Shown: in pieces, positions 5,990-32,117 of the stretch
Numbering within the stretch: the first letter of the stretch is position 1
How the letters are laid out: each line of letters starts with the position of its first letter
NCBI GenBank assembly: GCA_019828595.1
Contig: JAHQRK010000022.1
Coordinates: 310,001-374,000, forward strand
Reading direction: 5' to 3'
DNA: 64,000 nucleotides
Source of the DNA: Aphanomyces cochlioides
Lineage: Eukaryota; Oomycota; Saprolegniomycetes; Saprolegniales; Verrucalvaceae
The notes under the pieces: generated by a model
Seen by the model: the letters and a program-made list of their open reading frames with translations, nothing else
Told to the model about the DNA's origin: nothing
Databases searched by the model: none
Position numbers and translations under genes: made by a program

Positions 5990-6007
5990 CCTACACATCT
6001 CGCGACT

Positions 6008-10690: not shown

Positions 10691-12131
10691 GTCGGTACGC
10701 TATTTTGACAAATACTGCTCGCAAAAGGCATGTGTCGATGCGTCGATTTCCATGGCAGCTCAAATTCCCAACTGTCAAGTGGATGGACTCTCACGCCCTG
10801 CAGTTTATGGAGGAGCTTTCTCGTCCATATGCAAATTCTGTTGGGGACAAAATGCAACAAAGCTGCAAAATGCACTATCCATGAAATTATCGCCTGAATG
10901 CAAAGCCTTCTCGTCCTTTGACGACGTTGCGGGTCTTATCAGAGGCTTCAATGAGCTCGCGTGGGGAAATATTTGCTGGTCGAGTGCTTGCCGTCGTGAC
11001 CTCGACACTGCGGCCGCCGCCTTCCCGTCTTGTGAGGATGCCAAATCACCTCTCGCTGTCATCAATGGCATTCGCGCTGTGTGTGCCAGCAACAAGTTTG
11101 GCACCACCTTACCGTTGTGTGACAAGAAAGTCGACAACAAATCGATCCCACTTGGACCCAAATGCCAGGCCCTCGCCCCCTCCAGCACGACCAAGCTATT
11201 GGACTTCATCCGAGACCCCGTCTTGAACAACTCCCAGACATACTGTGCCTCGACTGGAGCTGCGAAAGGCTGCATGGATGAGCTTCTGTTGTCGACTATC
11301 CCGAAGATGCCCGCATGCCAAGATGCGACTACCTTTTGGAACATTGGCGACTATCTTTCGACCTTTTTGACGGGATTCTGCGCGGGGCCTCCAGCAACTC
11401 CGATTGCCTCGCTCACCAACTGTGTTGCTCAACTCGAACCCTTCTTGACATACCCCGTTTCAACCGCCTGCATGTCCAATTCCAGAATCTCCAATCTCTT
11501 TGCTAACAAAGGTCCAAAAGAATTCGCCCAACTTTGCTCGCAATCCAGCTGCATTCAAGATATCGCAGGTGCCATCGCTCGCTTGCCCACTGGCTCCTGC
11601 GCGTCCATTATCGCATCAGAAGTCAAAGTTATTCAAGCATACTGCGCATTCAATATGACGGCCACCACAGCCCAACCGGCGTGCTCATTGCAAATGGTCA
11701 GTCTTGAAAACACCGTCTTGGGATCTACACCCGACCCGACCTGCAATTCAAGCACACTTCAAGATGTCATTGCGCCAACCTCGCTACGCTATTTGAACAA
11801 CTTCTGCTCGCAAAAGTCATGTGCAGATGCGTCGATCTCGATGGCATCTCAAATTCCCAACTGTCAAATGGATGGACTGTCCCAACCTGCTTTGTATGGC
11901 GGCGTTTTCTCGTCCGTGTGCAAGACGCTGTATCCCCCACCAGCAACACCATCTCCCACCATTGCGACTCCAACTCAAACACCATCACCAACCAATGCGA
12001 CTCCAACTCAAACACCATCACCAACCAATGCGACTCCAACCCCAACCCCCACAAAATCAAATGGCAACCGTGTGCACCTAGAGAGCCTACTGGTTGGTAT
12101 CACATTGGTAGCCACAGCAATCGTGATGTAG
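9666..12131 (+). CDS. Secreted, GPI-tailed eight-domain elicitin-like protein (chimeric)
   Basis: This 821-codon open gene begins with a signal peptide (MKALPLIAFLVPLVVG) at the first ATG. It has eight elicitin-like cysteine units arranged as two rounds of a four-unit block (units 1-4 about residues 17-395, units 5-8 about 400-760). A Thr/Pro/Ser linker with a 33-bp minisatellite (TPTQTPSPTNA units) follows, then a hydrophobic GPI-type tail (LVATAIVM). The first half, up to about 10690, is nearly the four-domain protein at 3737-5026. From 10691 on, the DNA is nearly identical to the gene at 29640-32117. The IR2 breakpoint lies in domain 4 and preserves the frame, so this gene is probably a product of the rearrangement. 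Expression is unknown. Confidence 0.8.
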   Translation: MKALPLIAFLVPLVVGAPCTGQSLTTLQNVRAMNLSSECQGFTYCNDVACLFDSFTYFGFGNLCWSSACRRDLDTAAAAFPSCDEAKSPLAVMNGIRAVCASNKFGSTLPLCSEDIDYRLIPLGPKCQALAPSNTTALRDFLKYSIANNSQAYCASTGAAKDCMDELLTSTIPKMPSCQDVVMYWNLGDYLSTFLTGFCAGSPATPSASLTNCVAQLSPFLMYPISTTCSSVFGKYKYRYNFMSDFILDSNPKDFAQICSQTSCIQDINAAIALLPTNACRSIVASDVKAIQAYCAYNMTATATQPNCTSQMTTVEDTIFRSKPDTSCTLASFPLQYVLAPWSVRYFDKYCSQKACVDASISMAAQIPNCQVDGLSRPAVYGGAFSSICKFCWGQNATKLQNALSMKLSPECKAFSSFDDVAGLIRGFNELAWGNICWSSACRRDLDTAAAAFPSCEDAKSPLAVINGIRAVCASNKFGTTLPLCDKKVDNKSIPLGPKCQALAPSSTTKLLDFIRDPVLNNSQTYCASTGAAKGCMDELLLSTIPKMPACQDATTFWNIGDYLSTFLTGFCAGPPATPIASLTNCVAQLEPFLTYPVSTACMSNSRISNLFANKGPKEFAQLCSQSSCIQDIAGAIARLPTGSCASIIASEVKVIQAYCAFNMTATTAQPACSLQMVSLENTVLGSTPDPTCNSSTLQDVIAPTSLRYLNNFCSQKSCADASISMASQIPNCQMDGLSQPALYGGVFSSVCKTLYPPPATPSPTIATPTQTPSPTNATPTQTPSPTNATPTPTPTKSNGNRVHLESLLVGITLVATAIVM
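11958..12048 (+). repeat. 33-bp minisatellite in the Thr/Pro linker
   Basis: Between two and three copies of a 33-base unit encode TPTQTPSPTNA in the stalk before the GPI-type tail. The same array is at about 29723-29813 on the minus strand in the other IR2 arm. It is a likely site of length variation. Confidence 0.8.
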
Positions 12132-12228
12132 CTGGAATTTATTCGGCAGCTCGCAGACCATTGCATTGCTGGATAGTGCCTTAACAACAAAGTACACATT
12201 TACATTTTTCTCGGAACAATAAGTGCTT

Positions 12229-12600
12229 TCATGGAGATCTCACAATTGAAGTCGTATTGACCAACGACCATGGCGAAAAGCATCTTCGCGAGGGCGCTGA
12301 CCAATTCAGTTCATCGTATCGCCACTGCAGAGGCATTTGTTCACTAGTGTATGTAACTCTATTCTTAAGGCTAAACTGTTCAAGCCATTCGCGTGCTTTA
12401 CACGAGACGGCCACCGCCATGCCACCTCTGTCTACTTCAGGTAGCAATATCCTTGGAGATTCTATCGTGCAATCACCATCCGATCTGTCCTGCACTTCAC
12501 TCCACCTCTTCAGACAATACACGACTTTCTCCTTTGGCATGTGACCTAAACAGCGACCGAGACGAGACTTTGTGGTCATTCGTTTGGTTGACGACCGCAC
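12229..12600 (-). CDS. Hypothetical ORF, IR2 left copy
   Basis: A 123-codon minus-strand frame of unknown function. A segment near its middle (TIESPRILLPEVDRGGMAVAV) has a diverged relative at 33101-33304 plus (KIESPRIFLSQV...CVAVAV), which suggests a once-coding family. Next to the C-terminal part, at about 12236-12290, is a scrap of P450 exon 5 (KMLFAMVVGQYDFN read on the minus strand). In both places the unknown segment sits next to P450 3' sequence. It may be only a relic. Confidence 0.3.
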   Translation of the reverse strand: MRSSTKRMTTKSRLGRCLGHMPKEKVVYCLKRWSEVQDRSDGDCTIESPRILLPEVDRGGMAVAVSCKAREWLEQFSLKNRVTYTSEQMPLQWRYDELNWSAPSRRCFSPWSLVNTTSIVRSP

Positions 12601-13093
12601 TTTGTATGTGGTTCAGACGAACAAGTAGTGCCGAGAGAAAGGATATTGGACGCATTTGAGATTTCCGCTCTGGGTTTGCCGACATGTACGGACAACTCGT
12701 CCATTCCCAGATCAATAATAAGAATTGATTCTTTGACGAAAGAATGCAGGAATTCGACCAAGATGTGATGCTGCTAGAGAATATGCAGACCGTTTTCAGT
12801 CATTGCACAATACGCTCGCGATCGATGTCGTTTAGCGAAATTGCCAGCAGTTTCATACTCGACAGCAGATGAACTATATTCTTTAAACGTTGCAAAGGAA
12901 ATGTGTTTCCATTTCCCACTCAAGTGAGCGACTTGGAAAACCGGACTTGTGAAATCTCCGTGCCCAAACTACAGGTAGAGTACATTTATACACGACACAA
13001 GAGATATTGAAAAACACTTTGCATGACCTCGGTCTTGAAAGCAAAGCTGCCGTTGTTCAAGATCGTTTTTTTCTGGGTAAAGTGCAGTAAGCT

Positions 13094-13115
13094 CCATCTT
13101 GGGTCGATTTAAAGC
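13094..13115 (+). promoter_or_regulatory. Elicitin-family TATA-like box, IR2 left copy
   Basis: CCATCTTGGGTCGATTTAAA plus GC, one base different from the consensus, 167 bp upstream of the pseudogene ATG at 13282. Confidence 0.6.
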
Positions 13116-13281
13116 TGGCAAGAATCGACGATGCATGTAGCGTTATGTCATAAACTCCTTTTCATTTTGAAATTTGCTCTGAGAAGCCGGCACCGCCGTT
13201 TATTAAACTCCCTCTCCAAACTCCAACGCAATCACTTTGAAAGAACTGGCATCCAAAGAGAATATCACTGAGATCAAAACC

Positions 13282-14079
13282 ATGAAAAGCTTGTTCTTGT
13301 CTGCTGTTGTTTCCACGGGTAGCGGGCTCTCCAAGCACCAACCAAGAGATATCGACACTACAAACGGTGCTCTCCACGAATTTGTCGTCTGAATGCAAAA
13401 TATTGAATGGCTGCGGCAACATTGGATGCATTATTCAAAGCTTTGCTTGGCCCGAGTATGGAAATATTGGCTGGTCCAGATCTTGTCGTCGAGACCTCGA
13501 CAATGCCGCCGCCGCCTTCCCAACGTGCGATCAAGCCAAGTGGCCTCTCACAATTATTAATGGCATTCGCGCTGTGGGTGCCAGCAACAAGTTTGACTCT
13601 GCATTACCGTTGTGTGACGGGAAAGGCGACTACGAGTTCCCACTTGGACCGAATGTCAGGCTCTCGCCCCTTCCAAGTTGGAGGTCAGAGACATCATCTT
13701 GAACAACTCCCAGACATACTGTGCCTCGATTGGAGCCGCAAAAGACTGCATCGATGAGCTTCTGACGTCGACGATCCCGAAGATGCCCGCATGACAAGAT
13801 GCGTATAAACGTTGGGTAGTACCCGCATGCCAAGATGTGTACATTGGAACGTTGGCGATTATCATTCGGCATTTTTGACGGGATTCTGCGCTGGGCCTCC
13901 AGCGACTCGCTCACCAATTGTGTTGCTCAACTTAGTCCCTTCCTTACGTACCCCATTTCAAGCGAATGCATTTCCACTCCTGGTTCCAGATTCATGTCCG
14001 ATATCATTTTGGACAGTCGCTGGACAATATTCGCCCAGACCAGCTGCATTCAAGATATCAATGCCGCAATTGCGCTTTT
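13282..14079 (+). pseudogene. Truncated elicitin-like pseudogene, IR2 left copy
   Basis: The ATG at 13282 begins a signal-like MKSLFLSAVV but the frame is soon lost. The readable part (13307-13702) keeps SECKILNGCGN, a CRRDLDNAAAAFPTC segment and INGIRAV, with several Cys replaced (GWSRSC, AVGAS). There are more frameshifts after 13680 and a short local duplication (CCCGCATG.CAAGATG) at about 13788-13840. It ends abruptly at the Ty3/gypsy LTR at 14080, in the middle of the INAAIAL segment; the rest of the gene is not found beyond the element. Confidence 0.85.
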
Positions 14080-14342
14080 TGTAACCGTGCCATGTCTGGC
14101 AGGTACATAAAATGAGGGCGCGGTCTGCGCATTGACCTGGCGCCCTGCAGTAGCGGTTCCCCGCGCTCTGCTGTGTGAACGACTGGCCTTGGGAGGCCAC
14201 AGAAGTTGAAGCTCCTAGCGAGGCTGTGCGATAGCCAACGAGAAACAAGATAGGAACAAGACTTAGGTTGCTTTAACTTTAATTCACTCTTACACTTCAG
14301 TCGCAGTTCACACGCGCCTGATATCCTCTGCGCCCGGTTACA
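14080..14342 (+). repeat. 5' LTR, left element
   Basis: It runs from TGTAACCGTG to CCCGGTTACA. By eye it is identical to the 5' LTR of the right-hand element (27429-27691). Confidence 0.9.
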
Positions 14343-14344
14343 CC

Positions 14345-14358
14345 TGGTAGCACTCTAG
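14345..14358 (+). other. Candidate primer binding site
   Basis: TGGTAGCACTCTAG lies two bases inside the 5' LTR. Its first eight bases fit the 3' end complement of initiator Met tRNA (TGGTAGCA...), the usual Ty3/gypsy primer; the rest is imperfect. Confidence 0.5.
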
Positions 14359-14371
14359 TTCGTCCAGGACC

Positions 14372-15368
14372 ATGGACGCTGCGCCCGCGACGTCGACAAT
14401 CGACGTTTCCCACTTCTCACCCGAACAGCAAGCTACTCTGACCGAGCTGCTTCGCTTGATCCCCGAGAACATCGTTCGGGGATTGTTCAGTGGGGTAAAC
14501 GAACCCTCAAGACCAGATCATAGTCATTGAGAGCTTCCGCCTGCATGGTGAAGCAACCGCGCAGTCAGCGGCCCATGCCGCTGCGCAACGCACTCAAGAA
14601 GAGGCGGCGTTGCTCTATGAAGCAGACCTGTTGAAGGCCACGGCAAAGATCGCCAGCCTTGAAGAGTCCAACAGGGACTTGGCTGACCAAGCCAGACGAC
14701 CCGAAAACCCCTCACCGGGAATTGACGACATCTTCATCGACTCCAGAGTGTCGCGCGACCGACCTCTGAAGCTCGAAGTGTCAAAATATGGCGGCGCCGC
14801 GGACGAGCACCTGTTCCGCTGGGATTGCGAAGTGAAACTTGCAAGGACGAGCCCGAGACTGGGCCTACAACCTTCACATGTTGGACGACGAGGCTTTTCC
14901 CACGTTCGAATCCTTGATTGAACAACTCAAGGAGCAGTACGTTCACTCGAACGTCGAAATGCGCTATCGCGCAAAGTTCAACCAAGCCAAACAAGGCAAG
15001 GGGACTATTCAGGAGTTTGTGAACGAACTTCGTTCCATCCTCGGGTCCTTCGAGAACGCCTACAAGATCGACGAGATCGGTCGAGTCTCGGTCTTTATGT
15101 ACGGCCTGAATCAAGGCCCAGCTCGTGACGAGCTTTTCCGTTTGCAGCCTCAAAGGTTCAATGAGGCAATCAGCATCGCGCTGAACACGGAACATTCGCG
15201 CGGCCTGGCGCGCTCTTCCGGTGGATCCCACGATGTCTCAGCGGGCATGGAGATCTCGCGTATGGAAGCGGCCTCTGGTGAAGAGCGCCGCTGTTTCAAT
15301 GTGGCCAGACTGGTCAGTTCGCAAGAAAATGCCTTCAGCCTTCACAGGCGAGGAAGAATCTCTGACTG
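14372..15368 (+). pseudogene. gag: gag, frameshifted, left element
   Basis: The ATG at 14372 opens a capsid-type protein split by at least two frameshifts (near 14512 and 14845). The last piece (14839-15368) contains a retrotrans_gag-like helical segment (FNQAKQGKGTIQEFVNELRS...). A CCHC zinc knuckle survives only in the third frame near 15293-15340 (CGQTGQFARKC), where Gln replaces the usual His. The same lesions occur in the right-hand element, so gag was already dead before the duplication. Confidence 0.75.
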
Positions 15369-18300
15369 AGACTGTGCGCGTCAAGTTGGGTGATGGGTCG
15401 GTAGTGACCGCACCCAAGAGATCAGTGCGCCTGTTAACACAGGTTGGCACGTTCAGTAGTCTGGAAGACTACTTCGTTATAGACCTAGATGAGCGCTGGG
15501 ACGTCATCCTAGGCATGGGCTGGTTGGAGAAACACCAGCCCTGCATAAACTGGCGGGCCAAGACCATCCATGAGGTCGGCCCCGACTTTCTCAAAAGCCA
15601 TATGGGCATGGAGAGTAATGAGCCCATCCCCTCGCCAGCTGGCGATGAGCAGTTAGCTACGCTGCGTCAGCTCCCGGCTACGGGAAAGTCGACACGCCAG
15701 GGCGGTCCTATGTCTTCCAAGGAAGATATCGGCCGTCAGGCCTTCAACAACACTTGGGCAAACACCCGACGGACTGGGTTGCCTGTGTACAAGAATAATG
15801 CCCAACGGACCGGGCTTAAAGTCTCCTTCGCGAGTGCACCGACGGACCGAATGCACGGAGACGAGATTGTTGAAGAGGATGCGTTGGAGCGCAGTCCTAT
15901 GCCGACGCTGCCCGTGTCTGGGCGCGTCTTTGTTGAAGATGTCATCTTGTCGCATTGCGACTTGACTGAGCTGCCGAAGACAGCTGAAGAAATATGCAAG
16001 CTCAAAGATATGAGCTTTGCCGAGTTTAGAAGTGCTCTGCGCTCCAAGCGCATCACCAGTATCGCAGTGATACAGAGTGTCGATGAGATTGACCTCTATA
16101 CGACGTCCGCGGAGGATCCGGACGTAGCTGGCGAGACACCGCCAGCACACTCTCGCGTATGGGATAGGCTCCGAACGAGCCCGTTTTACCCCCTCGTGAA
16201 GGAATACGAGGATATCTTCCCGGAGGAAGTTCCCGCGAGACTGCCCAAGGACAAGGGCGTACGTCATGAGATTGACTTGACGCCAGAGACAAAGTGGTGT
16301 GTCACTCGACAGTGGCCACTACCACGTGAGCAAGTCGAGTTCATCGACTCATTCTTCGTTGCACGCAAGAAGGCGGGGCACGTACGGGAGAGTACGTCGC
16401 CACACTCGAGTCCGACCTTCTGTGTCAAGAAGCCTAGCGGCTCTTGGCGAATCGTTCATGCTTATAACAAGCTGAACGCAGCCACCATCCCGGCGCAAAC
16501 GCCGATTCCCAGGAAAGATGTCATCATTGACAGCATGGGTGGCTCGACGATCTTTTCAACGATCGATCTGCGCGATGGATTCTATCAAATCCTCATGCGC
16601 GCATGTGACGTTCCCAAGACAGCTGTCTCGACGCCATCGGGCATGCTGTGGGAGTGGCTGGTGATGCCACAAGGGCTCGCTAATGCCCCAGCGACCTACA
16701 ACCGAATGGTCACGCAAAGGTTGCGCCCGCTGCGCGACTTTGCGCCGTCGTACTTCGATGACATATACGAGCACAGCCGTGCAGACGAGAATCGCACCGA
16801 CGTGCAAGTCCATTTTGGACACCTGCGGCAGGTCTTTCAGACGCTGCGAGATGCAGGATTGTACGCCAACTTACAGAAGTGTATGTTCGGCGTTGACGAA
16901 ATACCCGTACTCGGGGAGTACGTTGGTATCAATGGATGTCGGCCAGACCCGGCCAAAGTCACCACGATCACAACTTGGCCTGTCCCGGCCACGGTGACAG
17001 AGCTCCGCAGCTGGCTTGGTCTTGCGACCTACCTTCACAAGTTTTCAAAGAACTTTGCCGACATCGCGACGCCACTGACGCGGCTACTAATGAAGGATGT
17101 CCAGTGGGACTGGACACAAGAATGTCAAGAGGCTTTTGACGGCATCAAGGCCAGCCTCACGCAAGCGCCGATCCTGGCGTTGCCTGACTTCAATCGACCA
17201 TTCTCGGTCGTCTGTGATGCATCTGTGCGAGCAATAGGTTGCAGCCTCATGCAAAAGGATGACGAGGGTCATGACCGACCCGTCTACTATCAGTCACGGC
17301 AGCTGCGCGCTGCTGAGCGCAACTATCCGGTCCATGACCTAGAATTACTGGCGATGAAATACGCCTTGGTCAAATTCCGCATCTACCTTCTCGGCTCGAA
17401 GCCGTTTACGGTATACACGGATCACGCGTCCTTACGGACTGCTGTGAACTCGCCGCACATCTCTGACCGGATGGCCAGGTGGCTCGCGTTTTTCGCGGAA
17501 TACAACATGACTGTTGAGTACAAACCAGGTCGTACCAACGTCATTGCAGACGCGCTGTCGCGCCGTCCAGCGGAGGAGGAACCTCCCTGCCTGTCTGCCC
17601 TATCCGAAGTCCGTTCGGACTTGTTTGATCGCATTCGAGGAGCGTACAGCCTCGATCCTGCCCTTCACCGGACGATTGATGCCATTACCGCTGGCAAATC
17701 GCTTTCCACCAAGGTAGTCCAGATCGGACGTTTCACCTTCCACGACGATTTGTTGTGGTATTCAGTCACTCCGGGGGACGCCCCACGAGTGGCTGTGCCG
17801 TGCGACCCGACTCTCCGTGCGGAGATCATCCGCGAATTTCACGACACCCCGAGCGGCGGCCATTTTGGCCGCGAGAAGACATATCTGTCCGTCGCCCGTT
17901 CATTTTGGTGGCCTCGCCTGTATAAGGCGGTGGCACGTTTTGTCGCATCGTGTGGCGTATGTCAGGCCGTCAAGGCCGCCCCACACTCACAGGCTCCGCT
18001 ACAGAGCCTCGACGTCCCACTGGAACTGTGGGAGGCCGTCAGCATGGACTTCATTTTTGGCTTGCCCAGTGACAAGTCGGGCAATACAGGTATCTTCACC
18101 CTTGTCGATCGCGCATCCAAGTACTTGATCGCGCTGCCTGATAAGGCATCCGTTACGGCGGAGCAGTCAGCTCGCCTTATCTTTGACAACGTCTATTGTC
18201 ATTTTGGACTCCCGTCCAGTATCGTCTCGGATCGAGACCCTCGGTTTACGTCCCATTTTTGGCGAGCGCTGTTCGCGCTCTGCGGGACGACGTTAAACAT

Positions 18301-18712
18301 GTCCAGCTCGGACCATCCAGAGTCTGATGGTCAGACCGAACGCGCGAATCGCGTTCTCGAAGACATCCTTCGAAGCTATGCCTTGTCTAGGCCGAAAACA
18401 TCGAGTTCCATGTTGCCAACAGCGTGCTTTGCCTACAACACGTCCGTTCATGCGCCAACGGGCTTTACACCCTTCTACGCGGTGCATCTGAAGCACCCGC
18501 GGCTTCCCACGGACGTGGACCGTCCTGTTTTAAGTGTGGGAGGAATCTCCGATGACGTTCCGCGGCGGACAGCCGCTTCTGTCGAAACATTTCGCGTCGT
18601 CACGCGAATCATTGTTACTGCGCCTACGCGAGAATATCGCCAGTGCTCAAGCGAAACAGGCCCGTCAGACCAACAAACACAACCGAGGAAATACAAATGT
18701 GTATTCGGTTAA
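15361..18712 (+). pseudogene. pol: Ty3/gypsy pol, frameshifted, left element
   Basis: The region codes for a protease remnant (DVILGMGWL at about 15500, but no D[ST]G active site upstream), reverse transcriptase with the YFDD catalytic box at 16751-16762, RNase H (DASVRAIG..., DALSRRP) and integrase. The integrase has an HHCC zinc finger about 17835-17970 and DDE residues in SMDFIFG, SDRDPRF and DGQTERAN. An extra A near 18588, absent from the right copy, shifts the frame and truncates the product at 18712. The remaining C-terminus (GPF/Y-like LGPFPIRKV) continues in another frame to about 18912. The polyprotein would reverse-transcribe and integrate the element. Confidence 0.9.
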
Positions 18713-18909
18713 CGACCTAGTCTACGTGCATCGGTCGGTCGTGAAAGGACCTAGCGGCCCTTCGAAGCTTCGCTGCCCTTGGTTGGGGCCGTTCCCTATT
18801 CGAAAAGTTATTAGTCCAGTGGACTACGAGCTCGAACTGCCCGATGACTGGGACATCCATCCCGTCATCTACACGGGCAAGCTCAAGAGACACATACCTC
18901 AGGACGCAG

Positions 18910-20141
18910 TTACCCCTTCTTCAGTTCCTCAAACGGAACGTAGTCCTGTCGGATCTTCCAGTAGAGCGCTTGAAGATGCGCGTCCAGACGATCTCTCTCC
19001 TTCGCGAGACGCTCAACAAGTAGCTCGAGCTCCGCGGGCCCAGTTCTTCAAGCCCTCGGCGGTCGCCGCGTGTTGCTCGCAGAGCTTCGACGTCTTCTCG
19101 AAGCGCGATTGCAAGTCGCGACGCTTCTCGCGCTCAGTCTGGAGCTCATCTTGAAGGTCCTGACGCCGACCTTCAAACTCCTGTTCGGAGTGACCAAGTT
19201 GGCGGGTCAGCTCCGCAACTTCATCACGCAGCTGGTACAGATTTTCGTCCAGCGCATATCTCGGGCGGTCCCGACTCGGACTACGCCCTGCCACTCGGCG
19301 CGAACGTTTCGCCTCAGGCTCGGTCGAGCGAGAGCGAGAACGAGGGGCGCGATGACGGCGCGCGGATTGTCGCGCAGCGCTGGGGCCAGCACGGCCGCGA
19401 GCATCGCCCCCTGGCGCAAAATTCGGAGGCGGCTCCTACGAACACATGGGTGAGAGAAGCGGACCTTGGTCCAGACTCACATAGACTACTCTCAGCTTTT
19501 GGTACGCGACAGCGATCGCTCCGACGGTCTCGGCAGCGAGGCGTACCTTCAAGCCATGGCGCTCACGCGCAAAATTAACAACACGCTCTTGGAACTTAGC
19601 GTAGTTGTGGGGCCACGTCGTGGTGTCGAGCGAAATACGCGCCAGCATTCGGTTGGCCCAGATGGCCACGTACTCAAATTTCGTTTCGTCCCGCAAGGGA
19701 GAAACAGGAACAAACGCGCGCATACCACCAAAGCGGCGCTGGCCTTGTCGGATCGAAGGCCATTCGGCCATATCGACGATGACGGGGTTGCAGGTTTCCC
19801 ACAAAGTCACTGCAAAGGCAACCCCCGCCGCAAAATCACTTTTAGAATCGCCGCGCAGGCGAGAAGGCAATTGCGCCAACAAATCTCGAACTTGCCCGGA
19901 ACGGGCGTGCCACTGCGAGAGGCTGTGAAGCCTGGCATTTGATCAAAGGTCAGATCGCATCCTGTGTCGGATGCCTGACAACGCGCGTGGACACCACCGC
20001 CAAGTCGAGTTTGGCCCTCACGGATCCAAAGGTTCTCAAGGTATTTGGGGCGCCTTTGCGCCGGCGCTGCGCTTTGCTCGCGACTGCCAGATCGGGCGAG
20101 GGCGGCGTGTACTCGTAATCGACCTCTTCGTCGGCGTACAT
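18910..20141 (-). pseudogene. Antisense coding region between pol and 3' LTR, left copy
   Basis: Reverse-oriented coding blocks follow one another: an acidic start (MYADEEVDYEYTPPSPDL), a conserved central block (19882-19436, WETCNPVIVDMAEWP...), an Arg/Ser-rich stretch and a coiled coil (19294-19013, LYQLRDEVAELTRQL...), ending YVPFEELKKG at 18910. It overlaps the 3' end of pol tail to tail. A missing G near 20090 breaks the first block here, and further frameshifts lie between blocks. Function unknown. Confidence 0.6.
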
Positions 20142-21630: not shown

Positions 21631-22863
21631 ATGTACGCCGACGAAGAGGTCGATTACGAGTACACGCCGCCCTCGCCCGATCTGGGCAGTCGCGAGCAAA
21701 GCGCAGCGCCGGCGCAAAGGCGCCCCAAATACCTTGAGAACCTTTGGATCCGTGAGGGCCAAACTCGACTTGGCGGTGGTGTCCACGCGCGTTGTCAGGC
21801 ATCCGACACAGGATGCGATCTGACCTTTGATCAAATGCCAGGCTTCACAGCCTCTCGCAGTGGCACGCCCGTTCCGGGCAAGTTCGAGATTTGTTGGCGC
21901 AATTGCCTTCTCGCCTGCGCGGCGATTCTAAAAGTGATTTTGCGGCGGGGGTTGCCTTTGCAGTGACTTTGTGGGAAACCTGCAACCCCGTCATCGTCGA
22001 TATGGCCGAATGGCCTTCGATCCGACAAGGCCAGCGCCGCTTTGGTGGTATGCGCGCGTTTGTTCCTGTTTCTCCCTTGCGGGACGAAACGAAATTTGAG
22101 TACGTGGCCATCTGGGCCAACCGAATGCTGGCGCGTATTTCGCTCGACACCACGACGTGGCCCCACAACTACGCTAAGTTCCAAGAGCGTGTTGTTAATT
22201 TTGCGCGTGAGCGCCATGGCTTGAAGGTACGCCTCGCTGCCGAGACCGTCGGAGCGATCGCTGTCGCGTACCAAAAGCTGAGAGTAGTCTATGTGAGTCT
22301 GGACCAAGGTCCGCTTCTCTCACCCATGTGTTCGTAGGAGCCGCCTCCGAATTTTGCGCCAGGGGGCGATGCTCGCGGCCGTGCTGGCCCCAGCGCTGCG
22401 CGACAATCCGCGCGCCGTCATCGCGCCCCTCGTTCTCGCTCTCGCTCGACCGAGCCTGAGGCGAAACGTTCGCGCCGAGTGGCAGGGCGTAGTCCGAGTC
22501 GGGACCGCCCGAGATATGCGCTGGACGAAAATCTGTACCAGCTGCGTGATGAAGTTGCGGAGCTGACCCGCCAACTTGGTCACTCCGAACAGGAGTTTGA
22601 AGGTCGGCGTCAGGACCTTCAAGATGAGCTCCAGACTGAGCGCGAGAAGCGTCGCGACTTGCAATCGCGCTTCGAGAAGACGTCGAAGCTCTGCGAGCAA
22701 CACGCGGCGACCGCCGAGGGCTTGAAGAACTGGGCCCGCGGAGCTCGAGCTACTTGTTGAGCGTCTCGCGAAGGAGAGAGATCGTCTGGACGCGCATCTT
22801 CAAGCGCTCTACTGGAAGATCCGACAGGACTACGTTCCGTTTGAGGAACTGAAGAAGGGGTAA
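21631..22863 (+). pseudogene. Antisense coding region between pol and 3' LTR, right copy
   Basis: This copy reads farther than the left one. 21631-21966 runs from MYADEEVDYEYTPPSP through EGQTRLGGG and PGFTASRSGT to the first frameshift near 21895. 21891-22337 is the central conserved block (AQLPSRLRGD, WETCNPVIVDMAEWP, FVPVSPLRDETKFEYVAIW). From about 22340 an Arg/Ser-rich, basic stretch leads into a coiled coil (22479-22740) and, after one more shift, ELELLVERLAKERDRL...FEELKKG with TAA at 22861-22863. The total is about 410 codons opposite to gag-pol. No known domain recognised; the region may be a retrovirus-like accessory or a captured gene. Confidence 0.6.
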
Positions 22864-25777
22864 CTGCGTCCTGAGGTATGTGTCTCTTGAGCTTGCCCGT
22901 GTAGATGACGGGATGGATGTCCCAGTCATCGGGCAGTTCGAGCTCGTAGTCCACTGGACTAATAACTTTTCGAATAGGGAACGGCCCCAACCAAGGGCAG
23001 CGAAGCTTCGAAGGGCCGCTAGGTCCTTTCACGACCGACCGATGCACGTAGACTAGGTCGTTAACCGAATACACATTTGTATTTCCTCGGTTGTGTTTGT
23101 TGGTCTGACGGGCCTGTTTCGCTTGAGCACTGGCGATATTCTCGCGTAGGCGCAGTAACAATGATTCGCGTGACGACGCGAAATGTTCGACAGAAGCGGC
23201 TGTCCGCCGCGGAACGTCATCGGAGATTCCTCCCACACTTAAAACAGGACGGTCCACGTCCGTGGGAAGCCGCGGGTGCTTCAGATGCACCGCGTAGAAG
23301 GGTGTAAAGCCCGTTGGCGCATGAACGGACGTGTTGTAGGCAAAGCACGCTGTTGGCAACATGGAACTCGATGTTTTCGGCCTAGACAAGGCATAGCTTC
23401 GAAGGATGTCTTCGAGAACGCGATTCGCGCGTTCGGTCTGACCATCAGACTCTGGATGGTCCGAGCTGGACATGTTTAACGTCGTCCCGCAGAGCGCGAA
23501 CAGCGCTCGCCAAAAATGGGACGTAAACCGAGGGTCTCGATCCGAGACGATACTGGACGGGAGTCCAAAATGACAATAGACGTTGTCAAAGATAAGGCGA
23601 GCTGACTGCTCCGCCGTAACGGATGCCTTATCAGGCAGCGCGATCAAGTACTTGGATGCGCGATCGACAAGGGTGAAGATACCTGTATTGCCCGACTTGT
23701 CACTGGGCAAGCCAAAAATGAAGTCCATGCTGACGGCCTCCCACAGTTCCAGTGGGACGTCGAGGCTCTGTAGCGGAGCCTGTGAGTGTGGGGCGGCCTT
23801 GACGGCCTGACATACGCCACACGATGCGACAAAACGTGCCACCGCCTTATACAGGCGAGGCCACCAAAATGAACGGGCGACGGACAGATATGTCTTCTCG
23901 CGGCCAAAATGGCCGCCGCTCGGGGTGTCGTGAAATTCGCGGATGATCTCCGCACGGAGAGTCGGGTCGCACGGCACAGCCACTCGTGGGGCGTCCCCCG
24001 GAGTGACTGAATACCACAACAAATCGTCGTGGAAGGTGAAACGTCCGATCTGGACTACCTTGGTGGAAAGCGATTTGCCAGCGGTAATGGCATCAATCGT
24101 CCGGTGAAGGGCAGGATCGAGGCTGTACGCTCCTCGAATGCGATCAAACAAGTCCGAACGGACTTCGGATAGGGCAGACAGGCAGGGAGGTTCCTCCTCC
24201 GCTGGACGGCGCGACAGCGCGTCTGCAATGACGTTGGTACGACCTGGTTTGTACTCAACAGTCATGTTGTATTCCGCGAAAAACGCGAGCCACCTGGCCA
24301 TCCGGTCAGAGATGTGCGGCGAGTTCACAGCAGTCCGTAAGGACGCGTGATCCGTGTATACCGTAAACGGCTTCGAGCCGAGAAGGTAGATGCGGAATTT
24401 GACCAAGGCGTATTTCATCGCCAGTAATTCTAGGTCATGGACCGGATAGTTGCGCTCAGCAGCGCGCAGCTGCCGTGACTGATAGTAGACGGGTCGGTCA
24501 TGACCCTCGTCATCCTTTTGCATGAGGCTGCAACCTATTGCTCGCACAGATGCATCACAGACGACCGAGAATGGTCGATTGAAGTCAGGCAACGCCAGGA
24601 TCGGCGCTTGCGTGAGGCTGGCCTTGATGCCGTCAAAAGCCTCTTGACATTCTTGTGTCCAGTCCCACTGGACATCCTTCATTAGTAGCCGCGTCAGTGG
24701 CGTCGCGATGTCGGCAAAGTTCTTTGAAAACTTGTGAAGGTAGGTCGCAAGACCAAGCCAGCTGCGGAGCTCTGTCACCGTGGCCGGGACAGGCCAAGTT
24801 GTGATCGTGGTGACTTTGGCCGGGTCTGGCCGACATCCATTGATACCAACGTACTCCCCGAGTACGGGTATTTCGTCAACGCCGAACATACACTTCTGTA
24901 AGTTGGCGCACAATCCTGCATCTCGCAGCGTCTGAAAGACCTGCCGCAGGTGTCCAAAATGGACTTGCACGTCGGTGCGATTCTCGTCTGCACGGCTGTG
25001 CTCGTATATGTCATCGAAGTACGACGGCGCAAAGTCGCGCAGCGGGCGCAACCTTTGCGTGACCATTCGGTTGAAGGTCGCTGGGGCATTAGCGAGCCCT
25101 TGTGGCATCACCAGCCACTCCCACAGCATGCCCGATGGCGTCGAGACAGCTGTCTTGGGAACGTCACATGCGCGCATGAGGATTTGATAGAATCCATCGC
25201 GCAGATCGATCGTTGAAAAGATCGTCGAGCCACCCATGCTGTCAATGATGACATCTTTCCTGGGAATCGGCGTTTGCGCCGGGATGGTGGCTGCGTTCAG
25301 CTTGTTATAAGCATGAACGATTCGCCAAGAGCCGCTAGGCTTCTTGACACAGAAGGTCGGACTCGAGTGTGGCGACGTACTCTCCCGTACGTGCCCCGCC
25401 TTCTTGCGTGCAGCGAAGAATGAGTCGATGAACTCGACTTGCTCACGTGGTAGTGGCCACTGTCGAGTGACACACCACTTTGTCTCTGGCGTCAAGTCAA
25501 TCTCATGACGTACGCCCTTGTCCTTGGGCAGTCTCGCGGGAACTTCCTCCGGGAAGATATCCTCGTATTCCTTCACGAGGGGGTAAAACGGGCTCGTTCG
25601 GAGCCTATCCCATACGCGAGAGTGTGCTGGCGGTGTCTCGCCAGCTACGTCCGGATCCTCCGCGGACGTCGTATAGAGGTCAATCTCATCGACACTCTGT
25701 ATCACTGCGATACTGGTGATGCGCTGGGAGCGCAGAGCACTTCTAAACTCGGAAAAGCTCATCTCTTCGAGTTGCAT
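22862..25777 (-). pseudogene. pol: Ty3/gypsy pol (RT, RNase H, integrase), right copy
   Basis: One long frame from about 25777 covers RT (YFDD about 25010-25021), RNase H, the integrase zinc finger and DDE core, and a GPF/Y-like C-terminal module (LGPFPIRKVISPVDYEL). The frame stays open to 22619, but those last 80 codons lie opposite the antisense gene and are probably not real pol. A divergent patch with a one-base deletion at 25755-25780 separates it from the protease part. Compared with the left copy it has substitutions such as F for Y (ANAPATF) and C for Y (DAGLC). Confidence 0.9.
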
Positions 25778-26410
25778 ATTTCTTCAGCTGTCTTCGGCAG
25801 CTCAGTCAAGTCGCAATGCGACAAGATGACATCTTCAACAAAGACGCGCCCAGACACGGGCAGCGTCGGCATAGGACTGCGCTCCAACGCATCCTCTTCA
25901 ACAATCTCGTCTCCGTGCATTCGGTCCGTCGGTGCACTCGCGAAGGAGACTTTAAGCCCGGTCCGTTGGGCATTATTCTTGTACACAGGCAACCCAGTCC
26001 GTCGGGTGTTTGCCCAAGTGTTGTTGAAGGCCTGACGGCCGATATCTTCCTTGGAAGACATAGGACCGCCCTGGCGTGTCGACTTTCCCGTAGCCGGGAG
26101 CTGACGCAGCGTAGCTAACTGCTCATCGCCAGCTGGCGAGGGGATGGGCTCATTACTCTCCATGCCCATATGGCTTTTGAGAAAGTCGGGACCGACCTCA
26201 TGGATGGTCTTGGCCCGCCAGTTTATGCAGGGCTGGTGTTTCTCCAACCAGCCCATGCCTAGGATGACGTCCCAGCGCTCATCTAGGTCTATAACGAAGT
26301 AGTCTTCCAGACTACTGAGCGTGCCAACCTGTGTTAACAGGCGCACTGATCTCTTGGGTGCGGTCACTACCGACCCATCACCCAACTTGACGCGCACAGT
26401 CTCAGTCAGA
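25759..26410 (-). pseudogene. Protease-remnant part of pol, right copy
   Basis: It carries DVILGMGWLEKHQP, typical of retropepsin C-terminal halves. The catalytic D[ST]G triad expected about 60 residues upstream is missing, because the frame meets the scrambled gag zinc-knuckle region instead. It ends in NSKR at the frameshift at 25759. Confidence 0.7.
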
Positions 26411-27399
26411 GATTCTTCCTCGCCTGTGAAGGCTGAAGGCATTTTCTTGCGAACTGACCAGTCTGGCCACATTGAAACAGCGGCGCTCTTCACCAGAGGC
26501 CGCTTCCATACGCGAGATCTCCATGCCCGCTGAGACATCGTGGGATCCACCGGAAGAGCGCGCCAGGCCGCGCGAATGTTCCGTGTTCAGCGCGATGCTG
26601 ATTGCCTCATTGAACCTTTGAGGCTGCAAACGGAAAAGCTCGTCACGAGCTGGGCCTTGATTCAGGCCGTACATAAAGACCGAGACTCGACCGATCTCGT
26701 CGATCTTGTAAGCGTTCTCGAAGGACCCGAGGATGGAACGAAGTTCGTTCACAAACTCCTGAATAGTCCCCTTGCCTTGTTTGGCTTGGTTGAACTTTGC
26801 GCGATAGCGCATTTCGACGTTCGAGTGAACGTACTACTCCTTGAGTTGTTCAATCAAGGATTCGAACGTGGGAAAAGCCTCGTCGTCCAACATGTGAAGG
26901 TTGTAGGCCCAGTCTCGGGCTCGTCCTTGCAAGTTTCACTTCGCAATCCCAGCGGAACAGGTGCTCGTCCGCGGCGCCGCCATATTTTGACACTTCGAGC
27001 TTCAGAGGTCGGTCGCGCGACACTCTGGAGTCGATGAAGATGTCGTCAATTCCCGGTGAGGGGTTTTCGGGTCGTCTGGCTTGGTCAGCCAAGTCCCTGT
27101 TGGACTCTTCAAGGCTGGCGATCTTTGCCGTGGCCTTCAACAGGTCTGCTTCATAGAGCAACGCCGCCTCTTCTTGAGTGCGTTGCGCAGCGGCATGGGC
27201 CGCTGACTGCGCGGTTGCTTCACCATGCAGGCGGAAGCTCTCAATGACTATGATCTGGTCTTGAGGGTTCGTTTACCCCACTGAACAATCCCCGAACGAT
27301 GTTCTCGGGGATCAAGCGAAGCAGCTCGGTCAGAGTAGCTTGCTGTTCGGGTGAGAAGTGGGAAACGTCGATTGTCGACGTCGCGGGCGCAGCGTCCAT
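26403..27399 (-). pseudogene. gag: gag, frameshifted and with a stop, right copy
   Basis: It has the same two frameshifts and off-frame zinc knuckle as the left copy. In addition a CAG to TAG change near 26835 (KEQ to KE-stop) separates the capsid-type segment from MRYRAKFNQ. Confidence 0.75.
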
Positions 27400-27428
27400 G
27401 GTCCTGGACGAACTAGAGTGCTACCAGG

Positions 27429-27691
27429 TGTAACCGGGCGCAGAGGATATCAGGCGCGTGTGAACTGCGACTGAAGTGTAAGAGTGAATTAAAGTTAAAG
27501 CAACCTAAGTCTTGTTCCTATCTTGTTTCTCGTTGGCTATCGCACAGCCTCGCTAGGAGCTTCAACTTCTGTGGCCTCCCAAGGCCAGTCGTTCACACAG
27601 CAGAGCGCGGGGAACCGCTACTGCAGGGCGCCAGGTCAATGCGCAGACCGCGCCCTCATTTTATGTACCTGCCAGACATGGCACGGTTACA
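27429..27691 (-). repeat. 5' LTR, right element
   Basis: By eye identical to the left element's 5' LTR. It abuts the elicitin pseudogene at the same base as in the left arm. Confidence 0.9.
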
Positions 27692-28489
27692 AAAAGCGCA
27701 ATTGCGGCATTGATATCTTGAATGCAGCTGGTCTGGGCGAATATTGTCCAGCGACTGTCCAAAATGATATCGGACATGAATCTGGAACCAGGAGTGGAAA
27801 TGCATTCGCTTGAAATGGGGTACGTAAGGAAGGGACTAAGTTGAGCAACACAATTGGTGAGCGAGTCGCTGGAGGCCCAGCGCAGAATCCCGTCAAAAAT
27901 GCCGAATGATAATCGCCAACGTTCCAATGTACACATCTTGGCATGCGGGTACTACCCAACGTTTATACGCATCTTGTCATGCGGGCATCTTCGGGATCGT
28001 CGACGTCAGAAGCTCATCGATGCAGTCTTTTGCGGCTCCAATCGAGGCACAGTATGTCTGGGAGTTGTTCAAGATGATGTCTCTGACCTCCAACTTGGAA
28101 GGGGCGAGAGCCTGACATTCGGTCCAAGTGGGAACTCGTAGTCGCCTTTCCCGTCACACAACGGTAATGCAGAGTCAAACTTGTTGCTGGCACCCACAGC
28201 GCGAATGCCATTAATAATTGTGAGAGGCCACTTGGCTTGATCGCACGTTGGGAAGGCGGCGGCGGCATTGTCGAGGTCTCGACGACAAGATCTGGACCAG
28301 CCAATATTTCCATACTCGGGCCAAGCAAAGCTTTGAATAATGCATCCAATGTTGCCGCAGCCATTCAATATTTTGCATTCAGACGACAAATTCGTGGAGA
28401 GCACCGTTTGTAGTGTCGATATCTCTTGGTTGGTGCTTGGAGAGCCCGCTACCCGTGGAAACAACAGCAGACAAGAACAAGCTTTTCAT
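27692..28489 (-). pseudogene. Truncated elicitin-like pseudogene, IR2 right copy
   Basis: Mirror copy of 13282-14079 with the same frameshifts, lost cysteines and truncation point at the LTR. It was therefore broken before the inverted duplication. Confidence 0.85.
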
Positions 28490-28655
28490 GGTTTTGATCT
28501 CAGTGATATTCTCTTTGGATGCCAGTTCTTTCAAAGTGATTGCGTTGGAGTTTGGAGAGGGAGTTTAATAAACGGCGGTGCCGGCTTCTCAGAGCAAATT
28601 TCAAAATGAAAAGGAGTTTATGACATAACGCTACATGCATCGTCGATTCTTGCCA

Positions 28656-28677
28656 GCTTTAAATCGACCCAAGATGG
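28656..28677 (-). promoter_or_regulatory. Elicitin-family TATA-like box, IR2 right copy
   Basis: TTTAAATCGACCCAAGATGG on the plus strand, 167 bp upstream of the pseudogene start at 28489. Mirror of 13094-13115. Confidence 0.6.
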
Positions 28678-29170
28678 AGCTTACTGCACTTTACCCAGAA
28701 AAAAACGATCTTGAACAACGGCAGCTTTGCTTTCAAGACCGAGGTCATGCAAAGTGTTTTTCAATATCTCTTGTGTCGTGTATAAATGTACTCTACCTGT
28801 AGTTTGGGCACGGAGATTTCACAAGTCCGGTTTTCCAAGTCGCTCACTTGAGTGGGAAATGGAAACACATTTCCTTTGCAACGTTTAAAGAATATAGTTC
28901 ATCTGCTGTCGAGTATGAAACTGCTGGCAATTTCGCTAAACGACATCGATCGCGAGCGTATTGTGCAATGACTGAAAACGGTCTGCATATTCTCTAGCAG
29001 CATCACATCTTGGTCGAATTCCTGCATTCTTTCGTCAAAGAATCAATTCTTATTATTGATCTGGGAATGGACGAGTTGTCCGTACATGTCGGCAAACCCA
29101 GAGCGGAAATCTCAAATGCGTCCAATATCCTTTCTCTCGGCACTACTTGTTCGTCTGAACCACATACAAA

Positions 29171-29542
29171 GTGCGGTCGTCAACCAAACGAATGACCACA
29201 AAGTCTCGTCTCGGTCGCTGTTTAGGTCACATGCCAAAGGAGAAAGTCGTGTATTGTCTGAAGAGGTGGAGTGAAGTGCAGGACAGATCGGATGGTGATT
29301 GCACGATAGAATCTCCAAGGATATTGCTACCTGAAGTAGACAGAGGTGGCATGGCGGTGGCCGTCTCGTGTAAAGCACGCGAATGGCTTGAACAGTTTAG
29401 CCTTAAGAATAGAGTTACATACACTAGTGAACAAATGCCTCTGCAGTGGCGATACGATGAACTGAATTGGTCAGCGCCCTCGCGAAGATGCTTTTCGCCA
29501 TGGTCGTTGGTCAATACGACTTCAATTGTGAGATCTCCATGA
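29171..29542 (+). CDS. Hypothetical ORF, IR2 right copy
   Basis: Identical mirror of 12229-12600. Its last part overlaps a short P450 exon-5 scrap (about 29481-29535) in another frame. The relative at 33101-33304 is next to P450 3' sequence too. Function unknown. Confidence 0.3.
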   Translation: MRSSTKRMTTKSRLGRCLGHMPKEKVVYCLKRWSEVQDRSDGDCTIESPRILLPEVDRGGMAVAVSCKAREWLEQFSLKNRVTYTSEQMPLQWRYDELNWSAPSRRCFSPWSLVNTTSIVRSP

Positions 29543-29639
29543 AAGCACTTATTGTTCCGAGAAAAATGTAAATGTGTACTTTGTTGTTAAGGCACTATCC
29601 AGCAATGCAATGGTCTGCGAGCTGCCGAATAAATTCCAG

Positions 29640-32117
29640 CTACATCACGATTGCTGTGGCTACCAATGTGATACCAACCAGTAGGCTCTCTAGGTGCACA
29701 CGGTTGCCATTTGATTTTGTGGGGGTTGGGGTTGGAGTCGCATTGGTTGGTGATGGTGTTTGAGTTGGAGTCGCATTGGTTGGTGATGGTGTTTGAGTTG
29801 GAGTCGCAATGGTGGGAGATGGTGTTGCTGGTGGGGGATACAGCGTCTTGCACACGGACGAGAAAACGCCGCCATACAAAGCAGGTTGGGACAGTCCATC
29901 CATTTGACAGTTGGGAATTTGAGATGCCATCGAGATCGACGCATCTGCACATGACTTTTGCGAGCAGAAGTTGTTCAAATAGCGTAGCGAGGTTGGCGCA
30001 ATGACATCTTGAAGTGTGCTTGAATTGCAGGTCGGGTCGGGTGTAGATCCCAAGACGGTGTTTTCAAGACTGACCATTTGCAATGAGCACGCCGGTTGGG
30101 CTGTGGTGGCCGTCATATTGAATGCGCAGTATGCTTGAATAACTTTGACTTCTGATGCGATAATGGACGCGCAGGAGCCAGTGGGCAAGCGAGCGATGGC
30201 ACCTGCGATATCTTGAATGCAGCTGGATTGCGAGCAAAGTTGGGCGAATTCTTTTGGACCTTTGTTAGCAAAGAGATTGGAGATTCTGGAATTGGACATG
30301 CAGGCGGTTGAAACGGGGTATGTCAAGAAGGGTTCGAGTTGAGCAACACAGTTGGTGAGCGAGGCAATCGGAGTTGCTGGAGGCCCCGCGCAGAATCCCG
30401 TCAAAAAGGTCGAAAGATAGTCGCCAATGTTCCAAAAGGTAGTCGCATCTTGGCATGCGGGCATCTTCGGGATAGTCGACAACAGAAGCTCATCCATGCA
30501 GCCTTTCGCAGCTCCAGTCGAGGCACAGTATGTCTGGGAGTTGTTCAAGACGGGGTCTCGGATGAAGTCCAATAGCTTGGTCGTGCTGGAGGGGGCGAGG
30601 GCCTGGCATTTGGGTCCAAGTGGGATCGATTTGTTGTCGACTTTCTTGTCACACAACGGTAAGGTGGTGCCAAACTTGTTGCTGGCACACACAGCGCGAA
30701 TGCCATTGATGACAGCGAGAGGTGATTTGGCATCCTCACAAGACGGGAAGGCGGCGGCCGCAGTGTCGAGGTCACGACGGCAAGCACTCGACCAGCAAAT
30801 ATTTCCCCACGCGAGCTCATTGAAGCCTCTGATAAGACCCGCAACGTCGTCAAAGGACGAGAAGGCTTTGCATTCAGGCGATAATTTCATGGATAGTGCA
30901 TTTTGCAGCTTTGTTGCATTTTGTCCCCAACAGAATTTGCATATGGACGAGAAAGCTCCTCCATAAACTGCAGGGCGTGAGAGTCCATCCACTTGACAGT
31001 TGGGAATTTGAGCTGCCATGGAAATCGACGCATCGACACATGCCTTTTGCGAGCAGTATTTGTCAAAATAGCGTACCGACGATGGCGCAACAACATCTTC
31101 AAGTGAGAGCCACGATGTCGTGGAACAGGACGGGTCGGGTTTGTTTCCCAAGACGGTGGCTTCAAGAGTTGTCATCAATGGCGTACACACTGGCTGGGTT
31201 GCTGGAGCCGTCCTGTCGAAGGTGCAGTAAGCTTGGATAGCTTTGACGTCGGATGCCACAATAGATCGGCATTCGTTCGTGGGCAATAGCGCAACTGCGG
31301 CATTCATATCTTGAACGCAACTGGTTTGGGAGCAAAACTGGGCGTACTTTGTCGAGCCAGCTTGAAAGAGCAAATCGTGCATGAAACGGAATTTGTAGCT
31401 GTATTTACCAAAGACGGAACTGCATGTCGTTGAAATGGGGTACATCAAGAAGGGACTAAGTTGAGCAACACAGTTGGTGAGCGAGGCAGACGGAGTCGCT
31501 GGAGACCCAGCGCAGAATCCCGTCAAAAATGTCGACAGATAATCGCCATAGTTCCAATACATGTAGATATCTTGGCAGGCGGGCATCTTCGGGAAAGTCG
31601 ATGTCAGAAGCTCATCCATGCAGTCTTTCGCAGCTCCCGTCGATGCACAGTATGTCTGAGGGTTACCCACGATAGAATATTTTATGATATCGAATAGCTT
31701 CGTCGAGTTGTAGGGGGAGATAGCCTGGCATTTTGGTCCAAGTGGGGTTAACATATTCATACTGTACTTGTAATCGTCGTCACACAACGGTAAGGTGGAG
31801 CCAAACTTGTTGCTGGCACACACAGCACGAATGCCATTCATAACAGCGAGAGGCGGCTTGGCTTCATCGCAAGATGGCAAGGCGACGGCAGCGGCGTCAA
31901 TGTCTTGACGACAAGCGCTGGACCAGCAAATGTTGACCAACTCGAACGCAGTAAAGCGATCGATGAGGCATGAAACGGCATCACAGCGCGTAAATATTTG
32001 GCATTGAGATGACAAGTTCGTGGCACGTACGGTTTGAAGTGTTGTCAAACTTTGTCCCGAGCATGGAGCACCCACAACCAGTCGAGCCAAGAGCGCAACC
32101 AAAGACAAGGCTTTCAT
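29640..32117 (-). CDS. Secreted, GPI-tailed eight-domain elicitin-like protein
   Basis: An 825-codon open gene from the ATG at 32117, which opens a signal peptide (MKALSLVALLARLVVG). Eight elicitin-like units follow in two rounds of four, then a Thr/Pro stalk with the 33-bp minisatellite and a hydrophobic GPI-type tail. Units 5-8 and the end of unit 4 (29640-31080) match the gene at 9666-12131 almost base for base; units 1-4 are clearly diverged from it (VSCLIDRF, YKFRFMHDLL). A TATA-like box lies 165 bp upstream. N-x-S/T sites (NAT, NNS, NMT) suggest glycosylation. Probably the parent of the 3' half of the chimeric gene. Confidence 0.8.
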   Translation of the reverse strand: MKALSLVALLARLVVGAPCSGQSLTTLQTVRATNLSSQCQIFTRCDAVSCLIDRFTAFELVNICWSSACRQDIDAAAVALPSCDEAKPPLAVMNGIRAVCASNKFGSTLPLCDDDYKYSMNMLTPLGPKCQAISPYNSTKLFDIIKYSIVGNPQTYCASTGAAKDCMDELLTSTFPKMPACQDIYMYWNYGDYLSTFLTGFCAGSPATPSASLTNCVAQLSPFLMYPISTTCSSVFGKYSYKFRFMHDLLFQAGSTKYAQFCSQTSCVQDMNAAVALLPTNECRSIVASDVKAIQAYCTFDRTAPATQPVCTPLMTTLEATVLGNKPDPSCSTTSWLSLEDVVAPSSVRYFDKYCSQKACVDASISMAAQIPNCQVDGLSRPAVYGGAFSSICKFCWGQNATKLQNALSMKLSPECKAFSSFDDVAGLIRGFNELAWGNICWSSACRRDLDTAAAAFPSCEDAKSPLAVINGIRAVCASNKFGTTLPLCDKKVDNKSIPLGPKCQALAPSSTTKLLDFIRDPVLNNSQTYCASTGAAKGCMDELLLSTIPKMPACQDATTFWNIGDYLSTFLTGFCAGPPATPIASLTNCVAQLEPFLTYPVSTACMSNSRISNLFANKGPKEFAQLCSQSSCIQDIAGAIARLPTGSCASIIASEVKVIQAYCAFNMTATTAQPACSLQMVSLENTVLGSTPDPTCNSSTLQDVIAPTSLRYLNNFCSQKSCADASISMASQIPNCQMDGLSQPALYGGVFSSVCKTLYPPPATPSPTIATPTQTPSPTNATPTQTPSPTNATPTPTPTKSNGNRVHLESLLVGITLVATAIVM

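What the first reader, a model, noticed from the sequence alone, without database searches (positions are those of the whole stretch)
10691..31080. 20-kb inverted duplication with a 663-bp P450 spacer (IR2)
Two arms of 9.86 kb are nearly identical in reverse and contain, in order, elicitin 3' half, ORF, elicitin pseudogene and a whole Ty3/gypsy element. The arms differ at real positions (an added A near 18588 on one side, a CAG-to-TAG in the other gag, a divergent patch at 15996-16022), so it is not a simple read-through foldback. Large young palindromes are unstable in eukaryotes and are seldom seen whole.
Basis: partly seen in the sequence, partly recalled or inferred. Interest (0 to 1): 0.8.

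Follow-up and report, generated by a model that had tools for sequence, protein, structure and literature searches.

The report
LTR-bounded palindrome in an oomycete genome
A 20-kb stretch of an Aphanomyces (root-rot water mould) genome is a near-perfect mirror image around a scrap of a cytochrome P450 gene; its edges suggest that DNA repair copied one side onto the other, guided by mobile-element ends and duplicated genes, which is a known kind of rearrangement with an unusually readable history.

Summary
The inverted duplication is in the sequence. Arms 10691-20553 and 21218-31080 (9,863 bp each) are 99.8% identical in reverse (15 substitutions, 3 one-base indels), around a 664-bp P450 fragment (20554-21217). 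The assembly is most likely Aphanomyces cochlioides.

Neither arm's gypsy element has a target-site duplication; 7 of 7 other copies with both ends in hand do. Both inner junctions lie at, or within one base of, LTR ends inside the P450. Both arms share 44 alleles (of 6,254 positions) seen in no other sampled copy and a private deletion: one element, duplicated. The outer junction lies inside an inverted pair of elicitin-like genes, where identity falls from 100% to about 83%. Substitutions cluster in 14935-16863 and the last 40 bp of the 3' LTR, with none in the outer 4.2 kb.

Best reading: repair copying between inverted sequences, seeded by tail-to-tail LTR ends, closed by the paralogous genes, then partial arm-to-arm gene conversion. 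Two genes now share an identical 479-residue C-terminus behind different N-termini.

Direction of copying is unresolved; no reads could be checked. New member of a known kind.

The parts
9647..10690 (+). Outer left flank: 5' part of elicitin-like gene A, about 83% identical in mirror to 31081-32136
10691..20553 (+). Left arm of the palindrome
   Evidence: 15 substitutions and 3 indels against the right arm
9666..12131 (+). Elicitin-like two-unit gene A, 821 aa; last 479 aa identical to B
   Evidence: no Pfam hit at E 0.01
13304..14079 (+). Elicitin-like remnant cut off by the element (mirror copy in the right arm)
   Evidence: tblastn match to unit 1 of A, 43% identity; BLASTN similarity begins near 13154-13205
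14080..20553 (+). Ty3/gypsy element, left copy; LTRs 14080-14342 and 20292-20553
   Evidence: LTRs; RT, RNase H and integrase zinc-binding domains above their Pfam cut-offs, integrase core below
20515..20553 (+). Anomalous tail of the left 3' LTR: three G-to-A changes and a changed or lost last base
   Evidence: pattern found once in the whole assembly with up to 1 mismatch, here
20554..21217 (+). Spacer: interior fragment of a cytochrome P450 gene, frame broken
   Evidence: paralogs; alignment; three-frame translation
21218..31080 (-). Right arm of the palindrome
21218..27691 (-). Ty3/gypsy element, right copy; LTRs 21218-21480 and 27429-27691
29640..32117 (-). Elicitin-like two-unit gene B, 825 aa
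31081..32136 (-). Outer right flank: 5' part of gene B, diverged mirror of the left flank

Best explanation
It is a repair-made inverted duplication. Before the event, retroelement LTR ends lay tail to tail about 660 bp apart in one P450 gene copy, and two diverged elicitin-like genes (A and B) lay inverted on either side. A broken end, pairing through the inverted LTR (fold-back on itself or on the sister), used the flank from the LTR to the elicitin-like gene as template for about 10 kb of new DNA. Copying ended where the new strand could pair with the paralogous gene on the other side (about 10681-10691), which closed the break; the loop of the fold-back remains as the spacer. Later the arms diverged and were partly made alike again by arm-to-arm gene conversion, leaving 14935-16863 and the LTR tail as unconverted patches. 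Shown: the anatomy, common descent of the two elements, the missing target-site duplications, the sharp boundaries, the clustering. Inferred: the break, the copying route, the later conversion.
For: Inner boundaries at or within one base of LTR ends, at two different points of the P450 gene. No target-site duplication in either arm vs 7 of 7 other copies with both ends in hand. Common descent of the two elements: 44 of 6,254 compared positions carry an allele shared by both arms and by no sampled copy, a shared private deletion, a shared change in the 3' LTR. Outer boundary inside paralogous inverted genes. Left LTR tail with 4 of its 5 changes in the last 40 of 263 bases (p 0.0024), as if left from an older LTR. 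Substitution-free stretches of 4,244 and 3,651 bp (sum of two largest gaps not reached in 20,000 random placements). Retroelement-type inverted repeats seed fold-back in yeast (PMC10164571, abstract and passages).
Against: Direction of copying is unresolved and its indicators conflict. The element is already recombinant in both arms, so at least one earlier step (loss of the elicitin-side 3' junction, not found in the assembly) must be assumed. Two insertions of one family within 664 bp of each other are unlikely a priori; the left junction may instead be an end-joining junction with a 2-base overlap (AC), since its LTR lacks or has changed its last base. The LTR tail could be a local mutation cluster. 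Consensus polishing could have homogenised the arms. No reads.
Confidence: 0.5

Rival explanations
1. Double-strand gap repair (ectopic gene conversion) between two pre-existing, diverged inverted segments, without fold-back: a gap between one elicitin-like gene and the neighbouring LTR was filled from the opposite arm, with elicitin-like and LTR homology as the two anchors.
For: Both ends of the near-identical tract end in homologous sequence on the recipient side. Genes A and B are inverted paralogs whose homology extends beyond the tract.
Against: Needs a conversion tract of nearly 10 kb and an LTR already present on both sides of the spacer; the anatomy does not separate it from fold-back.
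Confidence: 0.3
2. Another inverted-amplification route (ODIRA, or a dicentric break-fusion step) made a larger palindrome that later shrank; the LTR ends are incidental.
For: The region holds two more inverted repeats. ODIRA is proposed as a general source of inverted copy-number variants (PMC10766186, abstract).
Against: Predicts neither inner boundaries at LTR ends nor an outer boundary inside a paralogous gene pair.
Confidence: 0.1
3. Assembly artefact: the arms were joined or copied by the assembler or by polishing.
For: Multi-copy element inside the arms (134 LTR candidates, 40 scored); arms near-identical; no reads available to me.
Against: Each arm has its own derived substitutions (8 left, 7 right), outer flanks are diverged paralogs with open reading frames, and the junctions follow element and gene homology.
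Confidence: 0.1

Closest known systems
Fold-back inverted duplications with a disomic spacer (PMC3907307; abstract only)
   Same: Single spacer between inverted copies; inverted sequence at the spacer boundary.
   Different: Those were bordered by short inverted sequences and tied to terminal deletions or dicentric chromosomes; here the duplication is interstitial, the border is an LTR, and it is closed by a paralogous gene.
Inverted-repeat fold-back in yeast single-stranded DNA (PMC10164571; abstract and passages)
   Same: Inverted retroelement-type repeats with kb-scale spacers can pair and lead to inverted dimers.
   Different: An engineered assay with Alu repeats and telomere uncapping; here a natural, fixed structure.
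Gene-converting palindromes such as human Y-chromosome P8 (PMC6790999; abstract only)
   Same: Gene-bearing arms of very high identity with a spacer; arm-to-arm gene conversion inferred.
   Different: About 10-kb arms in an oomycete contig; conversion inferred from clustering in one sequence, not from population data.
Recombinant LTR retrotransposon copies (unequal recombination between elements; recalled)
   Same: Chimeric flanks without a target-site duplication.
   Different: Here the chimeric element is present twice, in mirror image.

Membership tests
Fold-back inverted duplication | Single-copy spacer between inverted copies | tested here: met
   664-bp spacer; the exact fragment occurs once in the assembly, best other match 98% over part of it
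Fold-back inverted duplication | Inverted sequence at the spacer boundary that predates the duplication | tested here: inconclusive
   LTR ends at both borders; that they predate the duplication is inferred from the LTR tail only
Ty3/gypsy LTR retrotransposon | LTRs, and RT-RNase H-integrase order | tested here: met
   (RVT_1, RT_RNaseH, Integrase_H2C2 above cut-off; rve below); LTRs
Ty3/gypsy LTR retrotransposon | 5-bp target-site duplication at this copy | tested here: not met
   absent in both arms; present in 7 of 7 other copies with both ends in hand
Elicitin (PF00964) | Pfam cut-off score reached | tested here: not met
   0 families at E 0.01 for A, B and the 3737-5026 gene; relative P0003 17.5 bits vs 25
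Gene-converting palindrome | Arm identity maintained by gene conversion | tested here: inconclusive
   clustering of differences; no population data

The most novel reading that the evidence does not exclude
The cluster is built by a recurrent cycle: P450 fragments act as palindrome centres, retroelement insertions in them supply inverted seeds, and each round of fold-back copying mirrors the neighbouring elicitin-like gene and joins its 3' part to a different paralog's 5' part, producing in-frame chimeric secreted proteins. The adjacent older inverted repeat around a 97.5% identical P450 fragment, and the third paralog that is itself a unit-1/unit-2 chimera, would be earlier rounds.
Probability: 0.2. 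Interest if true: 0.6.

Novelty: new member of a known kind. Interest (0 to 1): 0.38.

Why it matters
If reads confirm it, this is a base-level record of how an inverted duplication forms and is then homogenised in an oomycete: anchors at both ends, common descent and unconverted patches are all legible. It would show one way by which families of putatively secreted proteins in plant-pathogenic water moulds gain chimeric members. It also warns that mean arm identity can overstate the youth of a palindrome.

Tried and rejected
Independent insertion of two gypsy elements as the source of the whole arms: rejected, since both arms share 44 private alleles, a private deletion and the same 3'-LTR change. 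At most the last ~128 bp of each 3' LTR can be independent. Conversion of the divergent patch from another gypsy copy: not supported by the copies sampled, because the differing alleles are private to one arm at all substitution sites but one (16863, where the right-arm allele occurs in 1 of 28 copies). Only 40 of 136 candidates were scored and 27-39 copies were read at those body sites, so an unsampled donor remains possible.

Left arm as recipient, judged from the paralog at 3737-5026: first accepted, then withdrawn, because that paralog turns unit-2-like at about 10620-10640, before the arm boundary (by eye). The expected original 3' junction of the element in the elicitin-like remnant, searched as an exact 16-base pattern, was not found. 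A P450-side 5' junction gave three one-mismatch places, none followed by recognisable P450 sequence by eye.

Structure prediction of the A. euteiches relative gave pLDDT 31.7 and was not used. Paper searches for a genome paper on this species and for oomycete or Aphanomyces palindromes gave no direct precedent among the papers listed (listings, and passages of PMC8780586). That is no proof of absence from print.

A first recount of target-site duplications misread the strand of some loci, because the LTR begins alike on both strands, and reported 3 of 7 matches; the corrected recount gives 7 of 7, as read. In one search one entry (C6) of the deletion table was dropped afterwards because its left piece does not reach the point.
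Full report
What was checked. The window is C15:310001-374000 of a 76,215,617-base, 94-contig assembly. A database protein named AC1031_010111 of Aphanomyces cochlioides is listed with a contig of exactly C15's length, 1,508,571, and by eye it closely resembles the ORF at 33594-34385. I therefore take the organism to be A. cochlioides, a sugar-beet pathogen (host recalled).

The palindrome. Self-BLASTN shows one dominant inverted match, 9647-20553 vs 32136-21219. Base-level alignment splits it into a near-identical part, 10691-20553 vs 21218-31080 (9,863 bp each), and an outer part of about 83% identity. The near-identical part has 15 substitutions and three one-base indels (16000, 18585, 20086). 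The spacer is 20554-21217, 664 bp.

Contents, from outside in: the 3' portion of a two-unit gene (A, 9666-12131; B, 29640-32117 in mirror); intergenic DNA; an elicitin-like remnant (13304-14079); a Ty3/gypsy element with 263-bp LTRs (262 bp for the left 3' LTR) and RT, RNase H and integrase domains (the integrase core model is below its cut-off). A and B share their last 479 residues exactly; their N-terminal parts are 72% identical. The name elicitin is not secured: no Pfam family at E 0.01 for A, B or the 3737-5026 paralog, and 17.5 bits against a cut-off of 25 for an A. euteiches relative. The 3737-5026 paralog has no sequence match among solved structures up to E 5.

Inner boundaries. The left arm ends at the 3' LTR with the last base missing or changed, and P450 sequence follows; the right arm ends at the exact LTR end, and P450 sequence follows at another point of the gene. 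In the alignment, four paralogous copies run on past both points (by eye). Among the other element copies, seven had both outer ends in the fetched loci (six with two LTRs, one of these 12.4 kb long; one solo LTR), and 7 of 7 have a perfect 5-bp target-site duplication. Neither arm has one. The elements in the arms are therefore recombinant with respect to their flanks.

One element, not two. Of 6,254 element positions covered by at least five other copies, 44 carry an allele shared by both arms and seen in none of those copies; thirteen of the 44 lie inside the divergent patch 14935-16863. The 3' LTRs of both arms share a change at LTR position 134 that their 5' LTRs lack. Both arms also lack a segment at about 15358 that other copies carry: 30 of 31 tabulated copies have 331-370 bp more there and one has 708. 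So the arms descend from a single insertion at least as far in as 20425; only the last 128 bp of each 3' LTR could come from another insertion.

The LTR tail. The left 3' LTR differs from the left 5' LTR at five places, four of them in the last 40 of 263 bases (binomial p 0.0024). Three are G to A; a 29-base pattern holding them occurs once in the assembly with up to one mismatch, at this place. The simplest reading is the tail of an older LTR in the P450 gene, into which the copied tract ran. A local mutation cluster is the alternative.

Uneven divergence. No substitution lies in 10691-14934 (4,244 bp) or in 16864-20514 (3,651 bp, which holds two of the one-base indels); 11 lie in 14935-16863 and four in the LTR tail. 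The largest gap alone has p 0.003; the sum of the two largest was not reached in 20,000 random placements. Against 27-39 other copies at the body sites and 33 at the LTR sites, the left arm holds 8 derived substitutions and the right 7, counting as derived the right-arm allele at 16863, which occurs in 1 of 28 copies. In the patch the arms differ by 0.57%, comparable to the single LTR-LTR difference of the shared element (1 of 263). The duplication may thus be about as old as the insertion, with the rest made alike later. A polishing artefact could mimic part of this.

Outer boundary and direction. The mirror identity begins inside genes A and B. From 10375 to 10680, 74 sites join A with the 3737-5026 paralog against B, and 8 sites join A with B; after 10680 none join A with the paralog against B. 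This looked like proof that A was overwritten, but the paralog itself turns unit-2-like at about 10620-10640. The A. euteiches two-unit protein P0001 is closer to A (79%) than to B (69%), though the tree's supports there are weak, 40 and 49; that favours A as the native gene, while the LTR tail favours the left arm as recipient. I leave the direction open.

Neighbours. A second, older inverted repeat (3913-7646 vs 8553-10794; pieces 86-97% identical, with insertions in one arm) surrounds a P450 fragment 97.5% identical to this spacer over 472 bp. A third, 40800-41908 vs C15:373349-374457 (window 63349 and beyond), is listed as 100% over 1,109 bp, 99.5% over the 652 bp inside the window. The region is thus prone to inverted duplication.

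Mechanism. Fold-back duplications leave a single-copy spacer bordered by inverted sequence (PMC3907307, abstract), and inverted repeats can seed fold-back over wide spacings in single-stranded DNA (PMC10164571, abstract and passages). That fits the inner side here; closure through the paralogous genes fits the outer side. Gap repair with the same two anchors is the main rival. An ODIRA-type origin (PMC10766186, abstract) does not predict the LTR-end boundaries.

Limits. No reads, no second isolate, no DNA of a sister species. The LTR and body searches scored 40 of 134 and 40 of 136 candidates.

Noticed in passing
3913-7646 vs 8553-10794: Older inverted repeat (pieces 86-97% identical) around a P450 fragment that is 97.5% identical to the spacer of the palindrome studied; one arm holds a ~410-bp repeat found at dozens of places in the assembly and a further ~1.1-kb insertion.
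   Followed up: partly
40800-41908 vs 63349-64000 (continues beyond the window to C15:374457): Third inverted repeat, about 1.1 kb or more per arm, with P450-related sequence, arms about 21 kb apart; 99.5% over the part inside the window.
   Followed up: partly
3737-5026: Single-unit elicitin-like paralog that looks like a unit-1/unit-2 chimera with a switch near the position that corresponds to 10620-10640.
   Followed up: partly
37343-49617 and C15:301769-306939: Many P450 genes and pieces on both sides of the palindrome: a P450 cluster interleaved with the elicitin-like genes.
   Followed up: no
58817-59962: ORF with a Helitron-like N-terminal domain (E 7.8e-40).
   Followed up: no
54371-55774: ORF with a DDE_3 transposase-type domain (E 5.6e-09).
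   Followed up: no
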